NCBI GenBank assembly: GCA_016868255.1
Contig: VGHN01000007.1
Location: forward strand, 1 to 64,000
Length of the DNA: 64,000 bases
From: Betaproteobacteria bacterium
GTDB taxonomy: Bacteria > Pseudomonadota > Gammaproteobacteria > Burkholderiales > Burkholderiaceae_A
Direction: 5' to 3'
The notes below the pieces were generated by a model. It saw nothing but the letters and a program-made list of their open reading frames with translations. It searched no databases and was not told the DNA's origin. Every line of letters begins with the position of its first letter. Positions within the stretch are counted from its first letter, which is position 1. Of the stretch, positions 1 to 64,000 are shown piece by piece. The position numbers and the translations under genes were made by a program.

Positions 1-33
1 GGGGCGGCCTTGGGGCGGCCTTGGGGCGGCCTT
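1..33. repeat. 11-bp tandem repeat, three copies
   Basis: Three perfect head-to-tail copies of GGGGCGGCCTT fill the first 33 bases. The array may continue to the left of the window. It lies about 30 bases beyond the stop codon of the fur gene. Bases 34-64 hold nothing recognisable. The function is unknown; slippage of a GC-rich unit would explain it. Confidence 0.85.
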
Positions 34-64
34 CGGGGCCTGCCGAGAGAGAGTTCTTGTTCAT

Positions 65-520
65 CTAGCCCGCCTTGCCCTGGGTTCGACGATGGGGGCA
101 GGGTTTTCTTGAGCAATGGCCATAGAGCGCAAGCGAATGGTCTTGCAGCACAAACCCACGCTCTTCGGCGATCTTGTGCTGGCGCTCCTCGATCTTTGCA
201 TCGAAAAACTCCTCGACGCGGCCGCAATCGAGACAGACCAAATGGTCGTGGTGGGAGCCTTCGTTGAGCTCGAAGACGGCCTTGCCCGACTCGAAATTCG
301 ATCGCAGAAGAAGGCCGGCCTGCTCGAACTGGGTGAGCACTCGATAGACCGTGGCCAGACCAATGTCCATCTTCTCCGCAAGCAGAATGCGATAGACATC
401 TTCCGCGGTGAGGTGCCGCACTTTCGATTGCTCGAAGATCGAGAGGACTCGTAGTCTCGGGAGCGTGACCTTCAGGCCAGTGCTCTTGAGTCCAGCGGCA
501 AGTTCGTCGGTGGAAGCCAT
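65..520 (-). CDS. fur: Ferric uptake regulator Fur
   Basis: Iron-responsive, metal-binding transcriptional repressor of the Fur family, acting in the cytoplasm as a dimer. The 151 residues match the usual length. The N-terminal winged helix (about residues 10-85) contains the recognition segment GLATVYRVL (54-62). The metal-binding region carries the [11 protein letters not shown] signature (H90, H91, D92, H93, C96, C99), and a second cysteine pair lies at C136 and C141. The gene is divergent from bamE, and only 17 bases separate the two start codons, so the promoters must overlap coding sequence. No good Shine-Dalgarno sequence precedes the ATG. The family call is firm; the exact start is slightly less so. 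Confidence 0.96.
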
Positions 521-537
521 GCCCGTATGATAGCGAG

Positions 538-1008
538 ATGCGACAAACCTCCCGAATTTCTGAGGCGCCCGCCCTGGGGTCTAACCAGGCGCGCGAGAGC
601 CGTCGGTCCGCCCGACCCATCCTGTCACTCTCTGCGGCAATTGCCCTCTCGTTTACGTTGATCGGTTGTGCCAAGGTGAGCCAGGTCCGAGAAAACCCAC
701 CGAGTTGGCTCACGCCTTATCGCAGTGATATCGGCCAAGGAAATTTCATCACCAAGTCCCAGGCCGACCGCCTCAAGAAAGGCATGCGCAAGGAAGAGGT
801 CCGTCTTCTTCTCGGGACACCACTTCTTATTGACCCCTTCCGAGAGAATCGCTGGGACTATGTCTTTGATATTCGCAAGGGCGATGGCAGTCGGGAACGT
901 CGCCGGTTCTTTGTTGAATTCAAAGGCGATGCCCTCGAACAATGGGGTGGCGATGAGTTGCCGACCGAGTCGGGCGATGCCCTTCTTCCGATGAGACCCG
1001 CCCGATAG
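538..1008 (+). CDS. bamE: Outer membrane assembly lipoprotein BamE (SmpA/OmlA)
   Basis: Small lipoprotein subunit of the BAM complex, which inserts beta-barrel proteins into the outer membrane. The 156-residue product has a basic N-terminus, a hydrophobic stretch and a lipobox ending at C44 (LIGC), followed by the typical SmpA/OmlA domain with [12 protein letters not shown] and the [16 protein letters not shown] helix-turn region. The first 24 or so residues are longer than usual for a signal peptide, so translation may begin at a non-ATG codon further in; no internal ATG precedes the lipobox. It is followed after 2 bases by dapB and is probably co-transcribed with it. Confidence 0.92.
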
Positions 1009-1010
1009 CA

Positions 1011-1826
1011 ATGAGCGGTCGCATTCGAATCGCAATCGCCGGGGCCAGCGGCAAGATGGGTCAGATGCTCATTGCGGCGGTGGCCAGTGATGCGGATACG
1101 CAACTTGCGGTCGCGCTCGACCGTGCCGATAGCCCGATGATCGGCAGGGATGCGGGCCAAGCCATGGGTCTTCAATTGAATGTGCCAGTGACCAGCAATC
1201 TTGATGCACTGGCCGGCGCAGATGTCCTGATCGATTTCACCCGGCCCGAGGCGAGTCTTCTTCATCTCAAAGCCTGCCTGCAAAGCAAAACCAGAGTGGT
1301 GCTTGGAACCACGGGTTTTGATGCGGCCGAACTCGCCGCCATTGATGACTTCTCCAAGAAAGCATCGATCGTCTTTGCTCCCAACATGAGCGTGGGTGTC
1401 AATATCACCTTGAAGATTTTGGAAGCGGCCGGACGTTACCTGAGCGAGGGCTTTGATATTGAGGTGATTGAGGCCCATCACCGCCAAAAGGTCGACGCGC
1501 CCTCGGGCACGGCTTTGAAAATGGCCGAGGTCGTCGCCAAGGCCGCAAGCCGCGATCTTCAGAAAGATGCAGTCTATTCACGCCACGGCCACACCGGCGT
1601 GCGAAGCGACAAGGAGATTGGGTTTTCGGTGATTCGTGGCGGGGACATCGTGGGCGACCACACCGTGCTCTTTGCTGGAACCGGTGAGCGCATCGAGATC
1701 ACCCACAAGAGTTCATCACGCGCCACCTATGCACAAGGTGCGCTGCGGGCCGCTAAATTTCTCCAGGGCCGGCCGAGCGGACGCTTTGATATGCAGGACG
1801 TACTAGGACTGCGCGAGCCGCAATAA
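1011..1826 (+). CDS. dapB: 4-hydroxy-tetrahydrodipicolinate reductase DapB
   Basis: Reduces 4-hydroxy-tetrahydrodipicolinate with NAD(P)H in the diaminopimelate/lysine pathway, feeding peptidoglycan and lysine synthesis. The 271 residues are standard. The N-terminal nucleotide-binding loop GASGKMG is at residues 11-17. The catalytic signature [17 protein letters not shown] carries the active-site histidines H156 and H157 and K160. The gene starts 2 bases after bamE. Its last 24 bases overlap the 3' end of the convergent recN gene, so the two reading frames share sequence at their C-termini. Confidence 0.98.
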
Positions 1827-3473
1827 CTCCTCGGCCAGTTCCAAGGCACGATCGCCGGTGCCCTCGTCGCCCAGCATTCTCGCAACTTCGTCTCGACGCT
1901 CTTCCTGGGCCAGTGGCCGAATGGTGCTGGATGGTTGGTCGTTGAGGACCCGCTTGCTGACCTGAAGGTGCTGGTGACCTCGCGCTGCGACCTGCGGGAG
2001 GTGGGTCACCGCCAGAACCTGATGAGAGGCGCCCAGGTCGCGCAGCAGTCGGCCCACCACATGGCCCGTGTTCCCGCCAATTCCTGCGTCCACCTCGTCG
2101 AAAATAAGGGTCGGTGTCTGTGTGGCCTGCGCAGCCACCGCGGCAATGGCAAGGCCCACACGCGAGAGTTCACCGCCTGAAGCCACCTTAGCGAGCGAGT
2201 GACCCTCCCCGCTTTTCTGGTGTTTCAAGAGAAATGAGATGTCCTCCAGGCCATGGTCAGAGGGGGTCTCGCGGGCGTCGAGCTGAACCTGAAAGACCGA
2301 CCCTGGCATGGCCAACTGAGCCAGCCACTGAGTGACCGCCTCGCCCAGCGATGCCGCCGCGGCCTTGCGACCTTTCGAGAGTTGCTTGGCGTCCTTCTCG
2401 TACTTCTCAAAGAGCGCCTTGGCCTGGGATTCGAGCCACTCTGAATCGGCCGACTGCGAGAGCGCCTCGCGAGAGGCCTGCAGCCGCTCCAATTCATCGA
2501 CCAACTCCTCGGGACGAAGCTTGAGTTTGCGCGCCACCTCGAAGATGGCCGAGACGCGGGCCTCGACTTCCTCAAGTCGCCGGGGGTCTAAATCTGCCCG
2601 ATCGAGATAACGGGACAACTCGCTGCCCGCCTCTTCCAATGAGATGGCAGCGGCCTCGAGCACCTGGGCCACGGCATCGAGGCGTGGGTCTTTGTCGACC
2701 AGTCCGCGAAAGCGAAGCGCCCAACGCTGCGATGCGCTCAAGAGGGATTGGTCGGCTTCTTCGATTTCATTGAGAGCCTGCTGGGCGGCCTCGACGAGCT
2801 CGGCCCCATGGGCGAGTCGGCGTTGCTCCTCCGAGAGCGACTCCCACTCCCCCCACTCGAGTTTCAGCGCTGCGATTTCGTCAATGCGCCAATTGATCTG
2901 CTCGAGTTGTGTAGCAATGCCGCTGGCCTCGGTCTGTGCGCGCTTGAGCGCTGTAATGGCCTTTTGCCAAGACTGGTGGTGTTGGCGAACACTGCCGGCC
3001 AGTTCGGTTAAACGCGCATGTCGATCGAGCAACTCTCGCTGGGCGCCCGAACGAAGCAACGACTGATGGGCGTGTTGTCCGTGGACGTTGACCAGAAACT
3101 CACCCAACTCTTTGAGTTGTGCAAGTGTGGCCGGCTGGCCATTGATCCAGGCGCGAGAGCGGCCACCGCGTTCAATATTGCGTCGAATCAAGACCGAGCC
3201 TTCGATGGAATCCAGGCCTGCCTCTTCCAGGAAGGCGGCCATCAGGCCGGCCTGCTCACCCGAAGGAATGAACTCCGCAGACAACTCGGCCCGCTCGGCC
3301 TGGCCGCGAATCTGAATGACATCGGCACGATCGCCTAGCAGCAGGCCAATGGCGTCGATGAGAATGGATTTGCCCGCACCGGTCTCGCCGGTGAGAACCG
3401 TGAAGCCCGCAGACAAGTCGAGTTCAAGGGACTCAACGGTCACAAAGTCACGAACTGTGAGCGTGCGAAGCAT
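1803..3473 (-). CDS. recN: DNA repair protein RecN
   Basis: SMC-like ATPase involved in double-strand break repair. The 556 residues match the family. The Walker A motif GETGAGKS is at residues 29-36. A long, charged coiled-coil-rich middle follows (roughly 160-390). The C-terminal half carries the ABC signature region ([13 protein letters not shown]) and a Walker B motif in [12 protein letters not shown], then the [12 protein letters not shown] switch region. It lies 12 bases downstream of nadK on the same strand and probably forms an operon with it. The 3' end overlaps dapB. Confidence 0.97.
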
Positions 3474-3485
3474 GCAGAGAGATGA

Positions 3486-4436
3486 TTAGTTGGACTCGGA
3501 GGGAAAGAGTGGGTCGGGTCGGTTGACCAGGACCGGATTGGAACTCCAATGGAGCTTGCGACGCAACATGGAGAAATAGTCGTAGTCCTTTGGATGAAGC
3601 AGGCGAATCGAATGACTGGAGTTGTGAATCACAATTCGATCGCCGTCGCGAAGCGCCGTCATCGCCTGCATATCGCAGTGAAGCTCCGTTCCACTGCCGT
3701 CGTTGACCATCACCGTGACCTGTGAATCCGCCGGCAACACAATGGGCCGATTCGAGAGGGCCTGGGCCGCAACGGGCACCAGGATTACCCCCGCCAGCCT
3801 GGGGTGAAGAATCGACCCCCAGGCCGAGAGCGCATAGGCCGTCGAGCCCGTGGGGGTTGCAACAATGAGTCCATCGGCGCGAAGACTCTGCATGTAGTGG
3901 CCATCGACAAAGACATCGAGCTCGACCATCCGGCTCACCGAGCCGCGACTGATCACCGCATCATTGAGCGCAGGCGCATTGAATACCGACTGCCAAGGCT
4001 CGGACTCGGAGGGCCGGCGCATAACAGCCACATCGAGCATGGCGCGGTCTTCGACCACACCCCCACCTTGCAGAAGTGGCGGCAACTGCTCACAGACGCG
4101 GCTGAGTTCGAGATCGGTTGTGAAGCCCAATCGGCCCTGGTTGACCCCAATCATGGGAATCGTACTCGGAGCGATTTGACGCGCAATGCCGAGCAGGGTG
4201 CCATCGCCTCCGAGAACGATCGCCAGATCGATGCTGCTCGCGAGTGCGTCCACAGAGCCCACCCGCAAGGATGGCGATGGCGAAAACCCGTTGGCTTGGG
4301 CGGTCTTTTCCTCCATCGCCATTGAGACGCCCGGGGTGGCCGACTCCGCACAACTGAGGATGGCGCGCAATGCGTCGGCGAGACCCGTGGTCTCGGGACG
4401 ACCAAACAAGCCGATCCGTGGATAGAGCAGCGCCAT
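3486..4436 (-). CDS. nadK: NAD kinase NadK (PpnK)
   Basis: Phosphorylates NAD to NADP using ATP or polyphosphate. The 316-residue product has the diagnostic GGDG motif at 76-79 within [12 protein letters not shown], the conserved NDAVISRG segment, and the glycine-rich [19 protein letters not shown] motif of the C-terminal domain. The ATG lies in the sequence CATG, which also supplies a possible ATG for hrcA on the other strand. recN follows 12 bases downstream, an arrangement common in proteobacteria. Confidence 0.97.
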
Positions 4437-4473
4437 GAAGGGATTAGATCACAGCGCCTCTACAATTCAGGAA

Positions 4474-5529
4474 ATGGACAACCGTTCGCGCCAGCTTCTA
4501 AAAACACTGATTGAGCGCTACATCGCCGAGGGCCAGCCCGTCGGATCCCGCTCACTATCGAAGTTCTCCGGACTCGACTTGTCACCGGCCACGATTCGAA
4601 ATGTGATGTCGGACCTTGAAGAGATGGGCCTGGTGGCCAGTCCGCACACATCGGCGGGCCGCATCCCCACCCCAAAGGGCTATCGACTTTTTGTGGACTC
4701 ACTGCTCACTGTTCAGCCGCTCATGCCTGAGCAGACCGCCCTTCTGGAATCGGGCCTACCCGCAGATGCGCCCAGCCGGATCATGGTCCATGCGGCGAAC
4801 CTGCTGTCGAGTCTCTCGCATTTTGCGGGGGTGGTCACGGCCCCCAAGCGGCCCATGCAGTTTCGTCACCTCGAGTTTCTTCGCCTCGGCGAGCGTCGGC
4901 TGCTCCTCATTGTGGTGACGCCCGATGGCGAAGTCCACAACAAGATCCTCCAAGTCGACCAAGACTACGAAACCTCCACCCTCATCGAGGCCAGCAACTT
5001 CCTCACCAGTCACTACGCGGGCATGGGATTCGATGAGGTTCGCAGCCGCTTGCACAGCGAAATCAAGGCCCTTCGGGCCGATGTGGCCAAACTCATGCTC
5101 AAGGCCGTCGATGAGAGCAGCGCAGCCATGGGCCAGCCCGAGGAGCACATTCTTATCTCGGGTGAGCGCCGACTGCTTGATGTCTCGGAACTCTCCAATG
5201 ATGTGGTTCGCCTGCGGCAGTTGTTTGAACTCTTCGAGCAACGCACCACCCTGGCCCGCCTGCTCGACTCCGCCATTGGCGCCCAGGGGGTACAGATTTT
5301 TATTGGAGGCGACTCCGAACTGGTCCCCGTGGAAGACCTCTCGGTGGTCACAGCCCCCTACGAAATCAACGGCCGAATCGTGGGGACCCTTGGCGTCATT
5401 GGACCCACGCGAATGGCGTACGATCGAATGATTCCGATTGTTGATATCACCGCGCGCCTGGTGTCCACCGCCATGGCCCAGATCGGAAACACCGACGACC
5501 ACTCCAGCCCACACCTGAGAGAGATATGA
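4474..5529 (+). CDS. hrcA: Heat-inducible transcription repressor HrcA
   Basis: Repressor that binds CIRCE operators upstream of chaperone genes; its activity is known to depend on GroE. The N-terminal winged helix contains the strongly conserved segments [19 protein letters not shown] and [15 protein letters not shown], followed by [20 protein letters not shown] choose the ATG at 4474 because homologues begin at this MDNRSRQLL-like segment; this gives 351 residues. An in-frame ATG at 4435 would add 13 residues and overlap nadK. The stop overlaps the hemH start (ATGA). A perfect CIRCE element lies upstream of groES at 53253-53279, a plausible target in this same window. Confidence 0.96.
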
Positions 5530-6644
5530 GCCTTCCACTGCCCGCCGGCAAAATACAAGACGAGCCGCACTATTCACATGGCAGCCGTCTGCGCGTGGGC
5601 GTATTGCTCGTCAACCTGGGCACGCCCGATGCCCCAGACGGCCCCTCACTCAAACGCTACCTAAAAGAGTTTTTGTCCGATCCCCGTGTAGTGGAGATCC
5701 CAAGTCTGGTCTGGTGGCCCATCCTCAACCTGATCATTCTCCAGACTCGTCCGAAAAAGTCTGCCGCCAAGTACGCCTCGGTCTGGATGCCCGAGGGCTC
5801 TCCCCTTCGAGTCTATTCCGAACGCCAACTCGAGAAGACGAGGGAGCGACTCGCTCAAAAGGGGTTCGATATTGAGATGGCGCTGGCCATGCGCTATGGC
5901 CAGCCCAGCATTGCCACGGCCATGGCCGATCTCAAGTCAAGGGGCGTCAATCGGTTATTGGTTCTGCCCCTCTATCCACAGTTCTCTGCGAGCACCACCG
6001 CCACGGTCTTCGATCGGGTCTATGCCTGCCTCGGCGAGATGCGAAGCCCACCGGCACTGCGCACCATTCGCCACTACCACGACCATCCTGCCTACATCAA
6101 AGCCCTGGCCGATTCGATCGCTGCGCATTGGGCCCGCGAGGGTCGAGGTGACATGCTCTTGTTTAGTTTTCACGGCGTCCCCAAACGCAGCCTACTCAAG
6201 GGCGACCCCTACCACTGCGAATGCCACAAAACCGCGCGACTCGTGGCCAAGCAATTGGGCCTTGCCGACACGCAGTGGCGACTCTCTTTCCAGTCGCGTT
6301 TTGGGCGTGCCGAGTGGCTCAAGCCCTACACCTCACAGACCCTTGAAGAACTCCCCGCACAAGGCATCAAGCGACTCGATGTGGCCTGTCCCGGTTTTAT
6401 CTCCGACTGCCTGGAGACACTCGAGGAAATCAATATGGAGGGTCGAGAGGAGTTTCTCGAGGCGGGTGGCGAGAGTTACAACTACATTTCCTGCTTGAAC
6501 GACAGCGAGCCCGCCATTGACCTATTGGCGGGGCTCATCGAAGAAGAGACCGCGGGCTGGCCCACTCGAGAGGAATCCAGAGACGCAATTGAAGACCGCC
6601 GTGTTGCAAGAGATCGGGCCCTGGCCATCGGGGCAGCCGACTAA
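5526..6644 (+). CDS. hemH: Ferrochelatase HemH
   Basis: Inserts ferrous iron into protoporphyrin IX, the last step of haem synthesis. The 372 residues include the N-terminal [13 protein letters not shown], the central [13 protein letters not shown], the catalytic [10 protein letters not shown] with H216, and the C-terminal [16 protein letters not shown] segment. About 25 acidic and basic residues at the very C-terminus look like a non-conserved tail. The start codon overlaps the hrcA stop, so the two genes are likely translationally coupled. The convergent neighbour is the MatB-like gene, 29 bases away. Confidence 0.97.
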
Positions 6645-6673
6645 AAAGTCAACGAGGCATCCAACCGAGTGGG

Positions 6674-8287
6674 CTAGACCAGGCCCATCGAATAGCGATT
6701 GCGCAGTTCGTTTTTCTGGACCTTGCCCATGACATTGCGAGGGAGTTGGTCGGCTACATAAATGCGCTTGGGCACCTTGAAGCCTGCGATGGTGCCCTTA
6801 ATCGCCACCAACAAAACAGCCTCCTCGAGCCTTGCACCCGATTTAGGAACCACAACCGCTGTGACGGCCTCACCAAAATCTGGATGGGGCACCCCAAAGA
6901 CCGCCGACTCATCCACACCCGGTAGATCATCGAGCAACTGCTCAATCTCTTTGGGATAGACGTTGTATCCGCCGGTGATGATAAGATCTTTGCTGCGGCC
7001 AACCAAGGCCAAGTAACCACGCTCATCCCATCGGCCCACATCGCCGGTCTTGAACCAGCCATCGGCGGTGAATTCCTCCTTGGTCTTCTCGGGCATGCGC
7101 CAGTAGCCAGAGAAGACATTGGGGCCGCGAACCTCCACGCCACCAATTTCAGAGGCCGTGCCAAGAGCAGGCTGCGCAATGACCGCCCGCGTCTCAGCAT
7201 GGGTGAGTCGAAGACCGACGCCTTCCAAGGGGTGACCGACCGTGCCGGGTCGGCGCTCACCTTCGTAGGGATTGGAGGTGAGCATGATGGTCTCGGACAT
7301 TCCGTAGCGCTCGAGAATGAAGTGGCCCGTGCGCTCTGTAAAGGCCTGGTGGGTCTCGGCCAACATCGGTGCCGAGCCCGACACAAAGAGCCGCATTTGG
7401 GCCGTCGACAACCGATTCAAGCGAGCATCTTCAAGCATGCGCACATAAAAGGTGGGCACGCCCATCAAGACCGAGGCCTTGGGCATGGCACGAAAAACCT
7501 GATCGGGATCGAACTTCGCCAGCCAGAGCATGTTGCTTGCATTCAAGAGCGCACCATGCAGAGCAACGAAAAGCCCATGGACATGAAAAATAGGCAGGGC
7601 ATGCAGCAGAACATCAGTCGAACACCACTGCCATGCGCGATGCAGCACCAAGGCATTGGATGCAAGGTTGCGGTGGCTGAGCATGGCACCCTTGCTTCTT
7701 CCAGTGGTACCCGAGGTATAGAGAATGGCCGCCAGCGAGTCCGGTGAGGTGGCCACGGTTTTGAAGTCGTTGCCATGGGGCGCAGCCTTCTGCAGAAGGC
7801 TGCCGTCGCGGTGGACGCCCAAGGTCTCGACGTGTTGGCATCCTGCGTCGGCCGCCAATGGGGCCACCCACTCCAAGTTCTCGGGACTGCAGACGACCAC
7901 CCCAGGCTCGGCATCCTCGATGAAATAGGAGATCTCGGAGGATCGATAGGCAGTATTCAGTGGCAGGAAGACCAGTCCTGCCCGAACCGTTGCGAGGTAG
8001 AGCATGACGGCCTCGGGCGACTTCTCCACCTGCGCCGCCACTCGACTGCCCTTCGGCAAGTGGAGTGATGCCAACCAGTTTGCAATTCGAGCGCTGCCCT
8101 GGTGCAGATCGGAGTAGCGGTAGAAAAGGCCCTCTGGGGTCTCAAATGCCACCCGATCGAGTCCCGCCTTCGAGGACCAGAGTTGACTTAAAAATTCGTA
8201 GAGGTTGCCAAGTCGATCGAGCGATTCAAGGCTGGAGAAACGAGGCAAAGCAGTGTTGGGCGCAAGCGTTTTTTCTTTGTTAGTCAT
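6674..8287 (-). CDS. matB: Malonyl-CoA synthetase-like AMP-dependent acyl-CoA ligase
   Basis: ATP-dependent acid:CoA ligase of the ANL superfamily, 537 residues from the ATG at 8287. Visible motifs are the P-loop YTSGTTGRSKG, the adenine-binding ERYGMSETIM, the TGDVGRWDERGY hinge region and the C-terminal catalytic lysine in LPRNVMGKVQKNEL. Malonate is the favoured substrate because malonyl-CoA decarboxylase lies in the same operon and the sequence resembles MatB; that assignment is inference. The start overlaps the upstream crotonase stop by 8 bases, which argues for this start over longer forms that would run far into the crotonase gene. Together the enzymes would turn malonate into acetyl-CoA and CO2. 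Confidence 0.85.
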   Translation of the reverse strand: MTNKEKTLAPNTALPRFSSLESLDRLGNLYEFLSQLWSSKAGLDRVAFETPEGLFYRYSDLHQGSARIANWLASLHLPKGSRVAAQVEKSPEAVMLYLATVRAGLVFLPLNTAYRSSEISYFIEDAEPGVVVCSPENLEWVAPLAADAGCQHVETLGVHRDGSLLQKAAPHGNDFKTVATSPDSLAAILYTSGTTGRSKGAMLSHRNLASNALVLHRAWQWCSTDVLLHALPIFHVHGLFVALHGALLNASNMLWLAKFDPDQVFRAMPKASVLMGVPTFYVRMLEDARLNRLSTAQMRLFVSGSAPMLAETHQAFTERTGHFILERYGMSETIMLTSNPYEGERRPGTVGHPLEGVGLRLTHAETRAVIAQPALGTASEIGGVEVRGPNVFSGYWRMPEKTKEEFTADGWFKTGDVGRWDERGYLALVGRSKDLIITGGYNVYPKEIEQLLDDLPGVDESAVFGVPHPDFGEAVTAVVVPKSGARLEEAVLLVAIKGTIAGFKVPKRIYVADQLPRNVMGKVQKNELRNRYSMGLV

Positions 8288-59355: not shown

Positions 59356-61125
59356 TTAATGGTCGAAGAACTGCTGACGGGCGAGTGCTTGGTACAGCAC
59401 CGACTCGCGCATGAGTTCCTCGTGAGAGCCCACCGCCACCAACCGGCCTGCATCCATCACCACGATGCGACTCGCCCGACGGACTGTCGAGAGTCGATGC
59501 GCAATGACCAGTGCGGTGCGACCGGGAAGAAGCCGCTCGAGCGCACTCTGCACCAGTCGCTCAGAGACGGTGTCGAGCGCCGAGGTCGCCTCATCCAACA
59601 ACAAAAGCGGCGGGTTTCGAAGAATGGCGCGCGCAATCGCGATTCGCTGACGCTGACCACCCGAGAGTCGCACACCCCGCTCCCCCAAGAAGCTGGCATA
59701 GCCCTGCGGTAGATCACCAATGAATTGGTCTGCATGGGCGGCTTGGGCAGCGGCTCGCACCTCATCGTCGGAGGCATTGAGCCGCCCGTAGCGAATGTTG
59801 CCCATCGCATCGTCCGAGAAGACAACGGGGTCCTGCGAGACGACACCAATGAGCCCCCGCAGTCTGGGCAAGTCCCACTGCTCAATAGGCCGGCCGTTGA
59901 TGCGAATTGCCCCCGACTGGGCTTGAAAGAAACCAAGAATCAGCTGAAACACAGTGGACTTGCCCGCCCCCGATGGGCCCACCAGGGCAATCGTCTCACC
60001 CGCCTCGACATTTAAGGTCAAGTCGCGCAAGGCCCAATCATTGGGGCGAGAGGGATAGGCAAAAGAGATGGCATCAAACGCAATTCGCACCGGCTCGGCC
60101 TGCGTGCCTTCAGCATTGAAGTGGTCCTCGAGGAGGCCCTTTGCAGACATCCGACCGACAAATCCACCCGCAGGCCCCATGAGATCAACCAGCCGCTCGG
60201 TGGCGCCAATGGCGCGCTGCAGATCCCCCCATCCCTCGGCAAGCGCCGCAATAGAGCCCGCAGTGAGCGTTGCATAGAGAACAAACTGCGCGAGCTCACC
60301 CGCACTCATCGAGCCTGCAGCGACCTCGCGTGCGCCGAGCCAGAGCACAAACACAATCACCAGGAATGCCAACACGATGGCCACCAGGGTGAGCATCGAG
60401 CGACTCCGAATGCGACGAAGCGACACTTCAAAGGCCCGCTCCACGGTCTGGACGTAGCGCGAGAGTTCAAACGGTTCGCGGCCATAGGCCTGCACGGTTG
60501 AGATGGCATTGAGCACCTCGCCGGCAAGTGCGCTGGTGTCGGCCACGCGGTCTTGGCTGTCCTTCGAGATGCTGCGGACACGCCGACCCAGGGCGAGGAC
60601 CGGCAAGACCACCGCCAGCAACAGGACCACCATCAGCGAAGCCAAAAAGGGGCTGGTGATGAGCATCATGGTGATGCCACCCGAGAGCAAGACCCCACTG
60701 CGCAGCGCCATGGAGACACTGGTGCCAATGAGTGTCTGAATCAGCGTGGTGTCGGCCGTGAGTCGAGAGAGGACCTCGCCGGTCTGCAGGGTCTCGAAAT
60801 AGCGCGGTGGCTGCACAAGGACATGGGCATAGACCGCGCGGCGCAGATCCGCCACCACCCGCTCGCCAAGCCAAGACATGAAGTAGAAACGCAGGGCAGT
60901 GAAGATCCCCAACGCAATGGCAATTAGCACGAGCAGTCCGAAAGGCTCTGCGAGTCCCGAGAGGCCCTGATCAATCAGCCCACGAAATGCCAGAGGCACC
61001 GAGAGTGTCGAGGCCGCAGCGAGTAAGAGAAAAAGAAAGGCCAGAAACCACTGACGTGGATACTGGGCGGCCAAGGCCCAGATAGGTCTGAGTTGATCAA
61101 TGGAGCGGCGGGGTTTGGGATGCAT
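59356..61125 (-). CDS. MsbA-like ABC exporter (fused permease-ATPase)
   Basis: Half-transporter of 589 residues. The N-terminal half has six membrane segments with FLLLAAASTLSVPLAFRGLID, VVADLRRAVYAHVLVQPPRYFE (coupling region), and LTADTTLIQTLIG. The ATPase half has Walker A GPSGAGKST, signature LSGGQRQRIAIARA, Walker B LLLLDEATSALD and the H-loop in ALVIAHRLSTV. Family members export lipids, peptides or drugs. Start is ATG 61125 (MHPKPRRSIDQLRPIWAL); the longer ATG 61176 form is not supported. It is divergent from the vWA gene with 50 bases between starts. Confidence 0.92.
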   Translation of the reverse strand: MHPKPRRSIDQLRPIWALAAQYPRQWFLAFLFLLLAAASTLSVPLAFRGLIDQGLSGLAEPFGLLVLIAIALGIFTALRFYFMSWLGERVVADLRRAVYAHVLVQPPRYFETLQTGEVLSRLTADTTLIQTLIGTSVSMALRSGVLLSGGITMMLITSPFLASLMVVLLLAVVLPVLALGRRVRSISKDSQDRVADTSALAGEVLNAISTVQAYGREPFELSRYVQTVERAFEVSLRRIRSRSMLTLVAIVLAFLVIVFVLWLGAREVAAGSMSAGELAQFVLYATLTAGSIAALAEGWGDLQRAIGATERLVDLMGPAGGFVGRMSAKGLLEDHFNAEGTQAEPVRIAFDAISFAYPSRPNDWALRDLTLNVEAGETIALVGPSGAGKSTVFQLILGFFQAQSGAIRINGRPIEQWDLPRLRGLIGVVSQDPVVFSDDAMGNIRYGRLNASDDEVRAAAQAAHADQFIGDLPQGYASFLGERGVRLSGGQRQRIAIARAILRNPPLLLLDEATSALDTVSERLVQSALERLLPGRTALVIAHRLSTVRRASRIVVMDAGRLVAVGSHEELMRESVLYQALARQQFFDH

Positions 61126-61175
61126 TGCTGTCTCATAATACGGGGTGACCCAAACAACCGCCGAGTGAGCCCGCA

Positions 61176-62024
61176 ATGCCCTACAACGCCGAGATTAGCC
61201 GCTCCAACCCCACCGCATTTTTGTTTCTCATCGATCAATCGGGGTCCATGGGCGAATCGGTCGGCAAAAGCAATTACACGCGTGCAGCCTTCCTCTGCGA
61301 TGCGCTCAATCGTGTGGTGATGAATCTGATTGCCCGCAGTTCCAAGTCCGAGGGGGTCCGCGATTACTTTCACCTCGGCGCCATTGGCTATGGTGGCCAG
61401 GGCGTGCACAACGCCCTTCGGGGGAGTTTTGCCAATCGAATCTTTCACCCCATCTCGGCCTTCGAACGATCACCCCTGGCAATCGAAGACCGCGTCGAGC
61501 AGATTCCAGATGGCAATGGCGCAATGCGATCACACTCGATCAAGTTCCCCGTCTGGTTTCAGCCACTGCATGATGGTGGAACGCCCATGCGCAAAGCACT
61601 TCGAATGGCGGCCGAGGAACTCACGGGCTGGTGCGATGACCATCCCGATTCATATCCACCCACGGTTCTTCACGTCACGGATGGCGAGCCCACCGATGGA
61701 GATCCAGAGCCGATGGCTGGCCAGGTGAGACAGACCGGCACCACCGATGGCCACTCGCTGCTCTTTAACCTCCACACCAGCAATAGCAAGGCCGGCCCCA
61801 TCGAGTTTGGTAGCAACGAGGAGGCCGTTCGTGACCCTTACGGAAAAAGTCTCTTTCGAATGTCGAGTCCCCTGCCCAAGACCGTGGCGGATGCAGCCAG
61901 AGAAAAGGGCTACGAAGTCGAAGCGGGTGCGCGGGGCTTTTTCTATAACGTGGAGCCGGTGGAAATCGTGGAGTTTTTTGACATCGGCACCCGTGCCTCG
62001 TCCCAGTCCATGCTGCTGAGATAA
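61176..62024 (+). CDS. von Willebrand factor A domain protein (TerY-like)
   Basis: Cytoplasmic vWA-domain protein of 282 residues. The MIDAS metal site is complete: D20-x-S22-x-S24 in FLIDQSGSMGES, threonine in HDGGTPMRKAL and aspartate in VLHVTDGEPTDGD. The rest (SLLFNLHTSNSKAGPIEF, GYEVEAGARGFFYNVEPVEIVEFFDIG) is conserved in TerY-type proteins. It is followed after 5 bases by a PP2C-like phosphatase and then a kinase, the gene set called the TerY-P triad in tellurium-resistance-associated systems. Adhesive or substrate-recruiting function is inferred from the domain. Confidence 0.85.
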   Translation: MPYNAEISRSNPTAFLFLIDQSGSMGESVGKSNYTRAAFLCDALNRVVMNLIARSSKSEGVRDYFHLGAIGYGGQGVHNALRGSFANRIFHPISAFERSPLAIEDRVEQIPDGNGAMRSHSIKFPVWFQPLHDGGTPMRKALRMAAEELTGWCDDHPDSYPPTVLHVTDGEPTDGDPEPMAGQVRQTGTTDGHSLLFNLHTSNSKAGPIEFGSNEEAVRDPYGKSLFRMSSPLPKTVADAAREKGYEVEAGARGFFYNVEPVEIVEFFDIGTRASSQSMLLR

Positions 62025-62029
62025 ATCCA

Positions 62030-62791
62030 GTGCGGGTGCTCCGTGCCATCAGCCTCCCCAAGGAGGCCGATTACGCCAGTTCAAACGAGGATTTTTTTCT
62101 TGCCGATCCGGGGGGCCGCATCGCATCGATGAGCGATGGCGCCAGTGAATCTTTTGACTCGCGAAGCTGGGCCCGTTGCCTCTGTCAGACCTTCAACGAG
62201 CGATTTCTGGATATCGGAGATGCGATTCCATCAGACGACGATATCCACGAGATGGTCAACACGGCACGAGGTCGATTCCTTGAACTCTTCTCATCGCGCG
62301 AACTGAGTTGGTCTCAACAGGTGGCCTTCGATCGCGGGAACTTCGCAAGCCTGATTGGCGTGATTGAGAGCAACGATCAAATCACCATGGTGGGAATCGG
62401 CGACTCCATCGCCGTCTGGCAAGAGCCATCGGGTCGGCTCCAGAGCCACCCCATTCCCCTCGACCAGCCCGACAGTTTCAAACGCCACCCGGTGCTGCTC
62501 TCCTCGGATACAAGGGGGGACGAGGATGTCTTTCATCGACAGCGACGTCGGTGGTCGGTGATTCAAGTGAGGAAGGCCCACCTCCTTGGGGCGCGTCTGT
62601 ATCTAATGACCGATGCGCTCGGCCATCAAGTTGTCTCCACAGCCCATGCAGGGCATTGGGATCTGGCAGAGAAGAATCTCTGCCAGAGTGAGACCGACTT
62701 TCGCTATTGGGTGACACAGCAACGCCTGAGCCATCAAATGCGCGTCGACGACACCACCCTTGCTATTCTCTCGTTCAAGGAATCCAGATGA
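62030..62791 (+). CDS. PP2C-like serine/threonine phosphatase (TerY-P triad)
   Basis: Predicted metal-dependent phosphatase of 253 residues with a GTG start. PP2C motifs are seen as SSNEDFFLADP (17-27), MSDGASES (D36-G37, metal-binding aspartate), GVIESNDQITMVGIGDSIAVW, and the last aspartate pair in VDDTTLAILSF. The glycine-rich core DG-x-GG is reduced to DGAS, usual for distant PP2C members. It overlaps the kinase gene start (ATGA) and follows the vWA gene by 5 bases. It probably counteracts the kinase. Confidence 0.8.
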   Translation: MRVLRAISLPKEADYASSNEDFFLADPGGRIASMSDGASESFDSRSWARCLCQTFNERFLDIGDAIPSDDDIHEMVNTARGRFLELFSSRELSWSQQVAFDRGNFASLIGVIESNDQITMVGIGDSIAVWQEPSGRLQSHPIPLDQPDSFKRHPVLLSSDTRGDEDVFHRQRRRWSVIQVRKAHLLGARLYLMTDALGHQVVSTAHAGHWDLAEKNLCQSETDFRYWVTQQRLSHQMRVDDTTLAILSFKESR

Positions 62792-64000
62792 GGCTGCCCA
62801 ACCTTGAGCAGTACCTTCGGGCCTTTCAACTGCCCCCGAGTCGCATTTTTAAGGACCCGGCACTGCGAGTTGCCACCGTCGAGACCAATGCCTTGGGCAT
62901 GCCTCGGGTTCGATCGGGAAACTTTGCGCTCGTCTTTCGACTCGATGCGGGCACCGAGACCTATGCAGCGCGCTGCTTTACCCGAACCTCCAAAGAGGTC
63001 GCCCAACGCTACCAAGCCATCGCGGAGGCAACGCAAGCGTTGCGGGTGAGCACCATGCCGCGCGCCTTTCTTCCTTTCGATTACCAGGCCCAAGGCGTCT
63101 CGGTCGAGGGCGAGTTCTTCCCAATCATCAAGATGAAGTGGGCGACCGGTCGCAGCCTCGGCGACTATCTCAGTGAGCACCACCAAAACCGAACCAAACT
63201 AGCAGCGCTGCGGCAGTCCATGAAATCACTGGCCGGTTTTCTCGAGAGCCACAGCATTGCCCACGGTGATATTCAGCCCGGCAATGTCATGGTCAGTGAG
63301 GATGCCAAGCAACTCCAGTTGGTCGACTACGACGGTATGTATGTTCCTGCGCTGTCGGGTCTGCCCGCGGCCGAACTCGGTCACATCAACTTTCAACACC
63401 CCAAGCGCAGCGAGGCGCATTTTCAACCAGAGCTCGATCGTTTCTCTTTCATCGCAATCGATTTCGCGCTCTCCGTGCTCGAGATCGAGCCCGGCCTCTG
63501 GGAACGCAGCTACAGCGACGAGGAAGGAATTGTTTTTCGGGCCAGTGACTATGCCAATCCCCTGCAATCGCCGGTGCTCGCCCTACTGGCCGAGCGGCCG
63601 GCTCTAAGAGAGCGAGTCGAACAATTCTCGAGAATCTGCCTGGGGCGATTCGAGGACATCCCCACTCTCGAGGAGTTTCAGAACGCGGCCATTCAGACCG
63701 CCCAGCCCGCCAAGGCCCCCACTCTTATCAAGCCCTCGGCTGCGCCGAGTACCGCACCCATTCCCGCGAAGCCCGCTGGAGGTCCCGAGAAGGCGCCAGC
63801 CCCCAAGGAACCCCCACCCATTGCGACATCGGCGCCGCTGGTATTTCGCCCCGTGTTGCGCGTCGAACCCACCGCGAATACCAACCCCCAGGAGACAGTC
63901 GCGGCCTATGTGGGGTCGTATGAAGTGGTGTCGGCCTCGAGTTTTGTGAAGGTCAGCCAGCATGTGGGCAAACGAATCGAGTCGGTGGGAAAGGTTGTTG
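62788..64000 (+). CDS. Protein kinase-like protein of the TerY-P triad (truncated by window end)
   Basis: First 404 residues of a protein that continues past the window. A kinase-like domain covers about 40-230: glycine loop VRSGNFALVF, catalytic loop HGDIQPGN (159-166; D161, N166), and LVDYDG (178-183) in place of DFG. The usual VAIK lysine position reads YAARCF, arginine R62 standing where lysine is expected. After about residue 304 comes a Pro/Ala/Lys linker (PAKAPTLIKPSAAPSTAPIP), then the start of another domain (from about 355, VFRPVLRVEP). Translationally coupled to the phosphatase gene. By context it is the kinase of a vWA-PP2C-kinase triad. Confidence 0.8.
   Translation, partial: MRLPNLEQYLRAFQLPPSRIFKDPALRVATVETNALGMPRVRSGNFALVFRLDAGTETYAARCFTRTSKEVAQRYQAIAEATQALRVSTMPRAFLPFDYQAQGVSVEGEFFPIIKMKWATGRSLGDYLSEHHQNRTKLAALRQSMKSLAGFLESHSIAHGDIQPGNVMVSEDAKQLQLVDYDGMYVPALSGLPAAELGHINFQHPKRSEAHFQPELDRFSFIAIDFALSVLEIEPGLWERSYSDEEGIVFRASDYANPLQSPVLALLAERPALRERVEQFSRICLGRFEDIPTLEEFQNAAIQTAQPAKAPTLIKPSAAPSTAPIPAKPAGGPEKAPAPKEPPPIATSAPLVFRPVLRVEPTANTNPQETVAAYVGSYEVVSASSFVKVSQHVGKRIESVGKVV

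What the first reader, a model, noticed from the sequence alone, without database searches (positions are those of the whole stretch)
61176..64000. TerY-P-type signalling triad: vWA protein, PP2C-like phosphatase and kinase-like protein
Three tightly coupled genes (5-base gap, then ATGA overlap) encode a MIDAS-intact vWA protein, a divergent PP2C phosphatase and a kinase-like protein. This combination was described as the TerY-P triad in the tellurium-resistance-associated gene neighbourhoods. Here it is not next to terC/terD genes within the window and sits beside an MsbA-like exporter. The right side beyond 64000 may hold further system components.
Basis: partly seen in the sequence, partly recalled or inferred. 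Interest (0 to 1): 0.75.

Follow-up and report, generated by a model that had tools for sequence, protein, structure and literature searches.

The report
Phosphorylation defence genes; relatives add motor
The three genes are a phosphorylation-based anti-phage cassette of a known type (TerY-P), and close relatives carry the same cassette in one operon with the membrane motor of another defence system (Zorya), a pairing that I did not find described in the papers I could search.

Summary
The genes are TerY (vWA), PP2C and a kinase ending at contig position 64,419. All three match PADLOC's TerY-P models, including the kinase's C-terminal OB region, so this is the stand-alone anti-phage form. No TerD was found in 11 of 11 genus genomes. 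To the right come tRNA-Met and other genes, not more of the system. A relative shows the empty site.

What is new comes from relatives. TerY is in 11 of 26 genomes of the bacterial family; two more hold triads cut by contig ends. In all 7 genomes with a Zorya II motor, ZorA and ZorB lie directly 3' of the TerY-P kinase, followed by a small protein, here called ZorX. ZorX's start resembles that of two of seven ZorE nucleases tested; in 3 of 6 complete copies its end carries the kinase's own tail motif. I read this as a chimeric system in which ZorX couples motor to kinase.

The window copy lacks ZorA, ZorB, ZorX and the kinase tail, and its kinase ends where the native tRNA flank resumes. It looks like a cut-down version with all frames and catalytic motifs intact. 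Function, coupling and the OB fold are untested.

The parts
61176..62024 (+). TerY, vWA protein, 282 aa, intact MIDAS
   Evidence: PADLOC TerY 2.7e-118, residues 1-275; vWA fold by model and PDB match
61986..62021 (+). C-terminal tail of TerY from GTR to the final LR
   Evidence: Arg is the last residue in 85 of 85 distinct loci and 11 of 12 further loci
62030..62791 (+). PP2C-type phosphatase, 253 aa
   Evidence: PADLOC PP2C 1e-51; Pfam PP2C_2 8.1e-8, over cut-off
62788..64000 (+). Kinase with C-terminal OB-type region; the gene runs on to contig position 64419 (543 aa)
   Evidence: PADLOC STK_OB 3.6e-145; C-terminus alone matches profile 317-456 of 562, 1.3e-28
61126..61175 (.). About 50 bases between the divergent exporter gene and TerY; the exporter start at 61125 is my choice of start codon
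   Evidence: sequence
59356..61125 (-).
   Evidence: In G004 it lies beside tRNA-Met without the triad

Best explanation
The window holds a TerY-P anti-phage triad of the OB-kinase form. On infection the kinase phosphorylates a target; the PP2C phosphatase opposes it in healthy cells; TerY scaffolds the two through its metal site and its C-terminal Arg tail. In the ancestor of this bacterial family the triad was the cytosolic half of a six-gene operon, TerY-PP2C-STK-ZorA-ZorB-ZorX, in which the Zorya II membrane motor would be the infection sensor and ZorX would tether it to the triad. The window copy has lost motor, ZorX and kinase tail and acts, if at all, as a stand-alone TerY-P. Shown here: homology, operon linkage in relatives, empty site, missing parts. 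Inferred: defence function in this organism, sensing by the motor, coupling by ZorX, the role of TerY, and loss rather than absence from the start.
For: PADLOC matches of all three proteins. Catalytic and MIDAS residues kept. Empty site in G004. ZorA2 in 7 of 26 and ZorB2 (E < 1e-80) in the same 7 of 26 family genomes; in 7 of 7 directly 3' of the triad kinase. Outside the family no ZorAB near TerY in 79 further related-loci loci, as far as their contigs reach. ZorAB carriers occur in both genera that carry the triad, and at two matching sites the ZorABX block is absent while the triad stays. ZorX start resembles two ZorE and three ZorX ends carry the kinase-tail motif. The window kinase is the only one of 12 without that tail, and homology to the empty site resumes at its stop codon. 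TerY-P protects against T7-like phages (PMC7699616, passage) and in P. aeruginosa at low and high phage dose with most cells surviving, some death still seen (PMC10889362, passages).
Against: No functional data for this organism. TerY-P acts alone in E. coli and Pseudomonas, so a motor is not needed in general. Kinase tails are also present in TerY-P outside the family and in family members without ZorAB, so the tail is not specific to the motor. Three of six complete ZorX copies lack the tail motif, and five of seven ZorE do not score with the ZorX start. With a model of full-length ZorX the Psychrobacter ZorE did not stand out from shuffles. The beta-3 Lys of the kinase is Arg in this clade, which may mean weak or no phosphotransfer. 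The window TerY has the longest end branch of the ten family rows in its tree. ZorAB could have been gained more than once rather than lost. Genomes are drafts of 70-99% completeness.
Confidence: 0.62

Rival explanations
1. The triad is an ordinary complete stand-alone TerY-P system, and in relatives an independent Zorya-derived cassette merely settled behind it, with no coupling.
For: TerY-P works alone elsewhere; defence genes cluster; ZorABX is cleanly absent at two sites where the triad stays.
Against: 7 of 7 ZorAB in the family are in the same order and strand behind the kinase, in two genera and at several chromosomal sites. No HNH ZorE follows; ZorX stands there instead, and half of its complete copies share a motif with the kinase.
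Confidence: 0.25
2. The window copy is a decaying remnant: the kinase was cut at its 3' end when the motor genes were lost and the triad is no longer functional.
For: The kinase lacks the tail that the other 11 of 12 family kinases have, and ends at the junction with native flank. The TerY end branch is long.
Against: All three frames are open and catalytic and MIDAS residues are kept; kinase and PP2C branches of the window (0.49, 0.71) lie within the range of relatives.
Confidence: 0.15
3. The triad serves metal or tellurite stress signalling rather than phage defence.
For: TerY and the triad were first described in ter neighbourhoods and proposed to sense metal (Anantharaman 2012, as cited in PMC11090510).
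Against: No TerD in 11 of 11 genus genomes; OB-type rather than zinc-ribbon kinase end; linkage to a phage-defence motor in relatives.
Confidence: 0.05

Closest known systems
TerY-P stand-alone anti-phage system (Gao et al. 2020, not held; PADLOC TerY, PP2C, STK_OB)
   Same: Three genes, same order, all three models matched, OB-type C-terminal region of the kinase.
   Different: Kinase stops about where profile position 456 of 562 lies and lacks the C-terminal tail; in family relatives the triad is followed by ZorA-ZorB-ZorX.
TerY-P triad with zinc-ribbon kinase in ter and CoCoNuT (type II, III-A) operons (PMC11090510, passages)
   Same: vWA, PP2C and kinase.
   Different: OB-type instead of zinc-ribbon kinase end; no TerD in the genus. 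CoCoNuT genes were not searched for genome-wide; none were noticed among the ORFs read beside the triad.
Zorya type II (ZorA, ZorB, ZorE)
   Same: Relatives' ZorA and ZorB match the type II models at E below 1e-80; the ZorX start resembles two ZorE.
   Different: No HNH ZorE behind ZorB; the TerY-P triad stands in front. The window genome itself has no ZorA2 match.

Membership tests
TerY-P (stand-alone, OB form) | vWA protein of the TerY family | tested here: met
   PADLOC TerY 2.7e-118, profile 1-274 of 277
TerY-P (stand-alone, OB form) | PP2C phosphatase of the TerY-P model | tested here: met
   PADLOC PP2C 1e-51, profile 1-241 of 242
TerY-P (stand-alone, OB form) | Kinase with C-terminal OB region | tested here: met
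   By profile only: STK_OB 3.6e-145 and C-terminus alone 1.3e-28 at 317-456 of 562. The OB fold itself is not shown: a relative's C-terminus has pLDDT under 50 and a C-terminal profile found nothing credible in the PDB.
TerY-P (stand-alone, OB form) | Three genes adjacent, in the order vWA-PP2C-kinase | tested here: met
TerY-P (stand-alone, OB form) | Protection against phage | not testable with these tools
   needs an experiment
ter (tellurite) operon TerY-P | TerD-family genes in the neighbourhood or genome | tested here: not met
   PF02342: 0 of 11 genus genomes; the control rang in 2 of 14. The own genome is 84% complete.
Zorya type II (window) | ZorA motor protein | tested here: not met
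   No ZorA2 match in G000; its one weak ZorB2 match (3.4e-7, contig 19) lies in a 415-aa ORF beside another ORF that I read as an ordinary stator-like pair
Zorya type II (relatives' operon) | ZorA and ZorB | tested here: met
   7 of 26 family genomes
Zorya type II (relatives' operon) | ZorE HNH nuclease | tested here: not met
   Behind ZorB stands ZorX, 51-182 aa in six complete copies. PADLOC gave only N-terminal ZorE2 matches: 3.8e-3 for one copy with a long start, lost when the start was moved, and 2.4e-4 for one of six. ZorE elsewhere in these genomes was not searched for.

The most novel reading that the evidence does not exclude
In this bacterial family TerY-P and Zorya II have merged into one machine. 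The ZorAB motor senses envelope damage at phage entry, and a bipartite adaptor, ZorX (start of ZorE plus a copy of the kinase tail), passes the signal to the TerY-P kinase in place of a nuclease, so that motor rotation or tension is turned into protein phosphorylation. The window shows the operon after loss of the motor.
Probability: 0.4. Interest if true: 0.85.

Novelty: new variant of a known kind. Interest (0 to 1): 0.66.

Why it matters
None of the passages I read say how TerY-P senses infection. The Zorya types described in the paper I consulted (PMC11890865, abstract and passages) pair the motor with ZorC/ZorD, ZorE or ZorF/ZorG. An operon that pairs a Zorya motor with a kinase-phosphatase triad suggests that the motor is a general sensor able to drive very different outputs, and gives a defined genetic system in which to ask what TerY-P responds to. 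The conserved C-terminal Arg of TerY and the tail shared by kinase and ZorX are concrete contact sites to test.

Tried and rejected
Tellurite context: not supported, no TerD in the genus. Phage or plasmid carriage: no TerY match in 50,697 phage records; two cyanobacterial plasmids among 72,556 at 1e-5, 12 records at E up to 10, the rest weak; in viral contigs 17 and 8 pattern matches, none a relative, for TerY and ZorB. tRNA-Met as an integration site: the tRNA is intact in the window contig and in G004; integrases were not searched for. OB fold: low-confidence C-terminus in the model of a relative's kinase, nothing credible in the PDB by profile. Names in NCBIfam: none for TerY and PP2C, 12 weak ones below cut-off for the kinase. 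Gao 2020 and Anantharaman 2012 are not held; what I say of them rests on passages in other papers. The weak ZorB2 match in the window genome (3.4e-7) was looked at and set aside as a stator-like pair by eye.

Post hoc tests: both ZorX motifs were first seen by eye or by a weak profile hit and only then tested. The kinase-tail model was built from 13 kinases, 9 of them of this family, so kinase scores with it are largely circular; only the ZorX scores are not. A model of full-length ZorX gave the Psychrobacter ZorE 9.0 bits (7.8 for the best domain) while the best of 2,000 shuffled ZorE reached 11.4, so that longer model does not support the link; the 28-residue model does. PADLOC gave ZorE2 at 3.8e-3 for the G022 ZorX with a long start, but nothing when the start was moved downstream.

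I left the odds of the novel reading as they were and set the confidence of the main reading at 0.62.

Full report
1. What is there. The three ORFs are as described: TerY 61176-62024, PP2C 62030-62791, kinase from 62788. The window is G000:C7:1-64000 of a 94,142-base contig in a 1.56-Mb, 84% complete draft genome. The kinase ends at C7:64419, 543 aa. To the right lie tRNA-Met at C7:64440-64516, a permease-like ORF and further ORFs that I read by eye as housekeeping; these were looked at to about C7:74,000 only. One named relative with a matching locus is the Burkholderiaceae MAG RJ.6 (the same stretch as G006; TerY 63% identical, 67%).

2. Families. PADLOC gives TerY 2.7e-118, PP2C 1e-51 and STK_OB 3.6e-145. 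The kinase C-terminus alone matches STK_OB positions 317-456 of 562, 1.3e-28. In Pfam, PP2C_2 is over its cut-off; vWA and protein kinase are matched below cut-off. The TerY model (mean pLDDT 89.9) matches vWA domains in the PDB. The kinase domain of the RJ.6 relative, modelled from 12 sequences, matches eukaryotic-like protein kinases; its C-terminal 200 residues are under pLDDT 50.

3. Residues. MIDAS residues are invariant in 30 TerY sequences. The H, D, N and D of the kinase loops are invariant in 93 of 93. The beta-3 Lys position is K in 70, R in 22 and a gap in 1; the R group is 19 Pseudomonadota loci, the window included, two cyanobacterial plasmids and one Armatimonadetes MAG. K to R is a classic loss-of-activity change in other kinases (recalled), so activity needs testing. 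TerY ends in Arg as its very last residue in 85 of 85 distinct loci, 84 as LR and 1 as MR, with five Arg codons and varied spacing to the next gene (eight duplicate loci dropped). In 12 further loci Arg is last in 11 and (L/M)R in 10; the exceptions are the Calothrix plasmid (DR) and the divergent G530 (EN). The last seven residues are under pLDDT 50 in the monomer model. A free C-terminal Arg kept across phyla suggests a docking contact; this is inference.

4. Distribution. TerY is in 6 of 11 genus genomes and 11 of 26 family genomes. In an order sample 7 of 399 have it, 4 of these 7 in this family. In a phylum sample 3 of 398 have it, the window genome among them. Two more family genomes, G001 and G021, begin a contig inside the triad. 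Among 96 loci then held, duplicates included, TerY was found in 93, the kinase in 88 and PP2C in 62; PP2C is under-counted because one sequence was used as query. Where all three were seen I read the order as TerY-PP2C-kinase.

5. Site. In G004, which has no TerY match, the exporter gene (C1:127966-129675) and the permease gene (129854-130657) are neighbours with tRNA-Met between. DNA homology between the two contigs ends at C7:61042, still inside the exporter gene, and resumes at C7:64416, at the kinase stop. The triad was gained here or lost in G004. In G003, G005 and G006 TerY and the exporter gene are on different contigs.

6. The motor. ZorA2 is in 7 of 26 family genomes. ZorB2 at E below 1e-80 is in the same 7; seven weaker matches (4.7e-8 to 5.8e-6) occur in G000, G001, G003, G005, G008 and G009 and I take them for ordinary OmpA-like proteins. 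In all 7 the motor genes follow the triad kinase on the same strand: G003, G018, G019, G022, G025 (profile matches for G003 and G022) and G001, G021. In G001, kinase stop and ZorA start are 3 bases apart. The window genome has no ZorA2 match. Outside the family, phmmer found no ZorAB in the other 79 related-loci loci nor in L105-L116, as far as those contigs reach. Four genomes outside the family had ZorB2 in the order sample. No triad protein was marked among the ORFs printed around them (part of each 8.7-14 kb stretch). ZorE follows ZorB in G472 by profile and in G690 by eye.

7. History. In the TerY tree the family is one clade (100/100) split by genus. In the kinase and PP2C trees its node is weak (80/66) and the place of the window within the genus is unresolved. 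ZorAB carriers occur in both genera that carry the triad. At two matching sites the ZorABX block is absent while the triad stays: G005 against G003 (next gene 60% identical over 93 aa) and G020 against G019 (next gene 64% over 196 aa). One ancestral linkage with repeated loss is the simplest reading; repeated gain is not excluded. End branches of the window are within the range of relatives for kinase (0.49) and PP2C (0.71), but its TerY branch (0.40) is the longest of the ten family rows.

8. ZorX. A small gene follows ZorB in all 7 genomes; in G018 it is cut by the contig end. A model of its first 28 residues, from 6 members, scores 15.6 bits on the ZorE of Burkholderia multivorans and 7.5 on that of Psychrobacter. 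The best of 8,000 shuffles scores 6.3 and the best ORF other than ZorX, of 19,988 ORFs in all, scores 6.6. The other five ZorE and the G463 protein score 1.9 or less or are not reported. A model of the full-length ZorX did not separate Psychrobacter ZorE from shuffles. PADLOC gives ZorE2 at 2.4e-4 for one of six. A 14-residue model of kinase tails scores 14.2, 12.7 and 8.2 on ZorX of G022, G003 and G025, and 1.8 or less on the other three. The best ORF that is neither kinase nor ZorX scores 7.9; of 6,000 shuffles the best two score 10.3 and 7.9. So half of the complete copies have both a ZorE-like start and a kinase-like end. The window kinase is the only one of 12 family kinases without the tail (most of these were in the training set).

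9. Mechanism. Published: TerY-P acts on T7-like phages (PMC7699616, passage). In P. aeruginosa it protects at low and high phage dose with most cells surviving, some death still seen (PMC10889362, passages). The OB-fused form is stand-alone anti-phage, the zinc-ribbon form joins ter and CoCoNuT operons (PMC11090510, passages). ZorAB is an ion-driven motor needing peptidoglycan binding, ion flow and the ZorA tail, with ZorE a nickase effector (PMC11890865, abstract and passages). I infer that in the six-gene operon the motor senses entry and ZorX brings or activates the kinase, and that the window copy acts alone.

10. Print. Searches in the held open-licence library: 'TerY-P', 7 papers; Zorya with TerY-P, 2 papers, both P. 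aeruginosa surveys (passages read in PMC10889362, listing only for PMC10855318); Zorya with PP2C, 2 plant papers by their titles; Zorya type IV, Zorya IV, Zorya-like and ZorAB kinase, 2 unrelated papers by their titles; Zorya, TerY, kinase, phosphatase with at least three terms, 89 papers of which the 25 listed never hold both Zorya and TerY. PMC11890865 holds neither 'kinase' nor 'TerY' in its main text. I therefore found no report of this linkage; most subscription papers are not held.

Noticed in passing
window 61986-62021: TerY proteins end in a free Arg, nearly always (L/M)R-COOH, in 96 of 97 loci from several phyla, with different codons; the tail is disordered in the monomer model. It may be a docking site.
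   Followed up: partly
window 62788-64000 (kinase): The beta-3 Lys of the kinase is Arg in all 19 Pseudomonadota loci examined, while most other loci have Lys: a natural version of the usual kinase-dead change.
   Followed up: partly
L092 10727-11587, L093 8193-8858, L094, L095, L096: In five genus genomes (G003, G005, G006, G008, G009) an upstream gene starting 'IKPRSLEE', with one apparent transmembrane stretch, lies just before TerY. No PADLOC or Pfam match. Not found beside the window triad.
   Followed up: partly
L013 11563-13236, L014 11580-13325: TerY-P kinases of Pseudomonas entomophila and Chromobacterium end in a strongly hydrophobic stretch that looks like a membrane anchor; kinases of the window family end before it.
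   Followed up: no
L048, L049: Nocardia miyunensis holds two triads in tandem; Yinghuangia seranimata holds two TerY and two kinase genes in opposite directions.
   Followed up: no
L005 (G000:C25) 2-6703: A kinase-like, a PP2C-like and an unassigned gene lie divergent from an FtsW/RodA-like gene and a penicillin-binding-protein-like gene. Pfam matches are all below cut-off and the last name is by eye. It resembles a cell-wall signalling cluster.
   Followed up: partly
family genomes (26) against order sample: TerY is in 11 of 26 genomes of this small-genome family but in 3 of the order sample's 399 genomes outside it: a marked enrichment without explanation.
   Followed up: no
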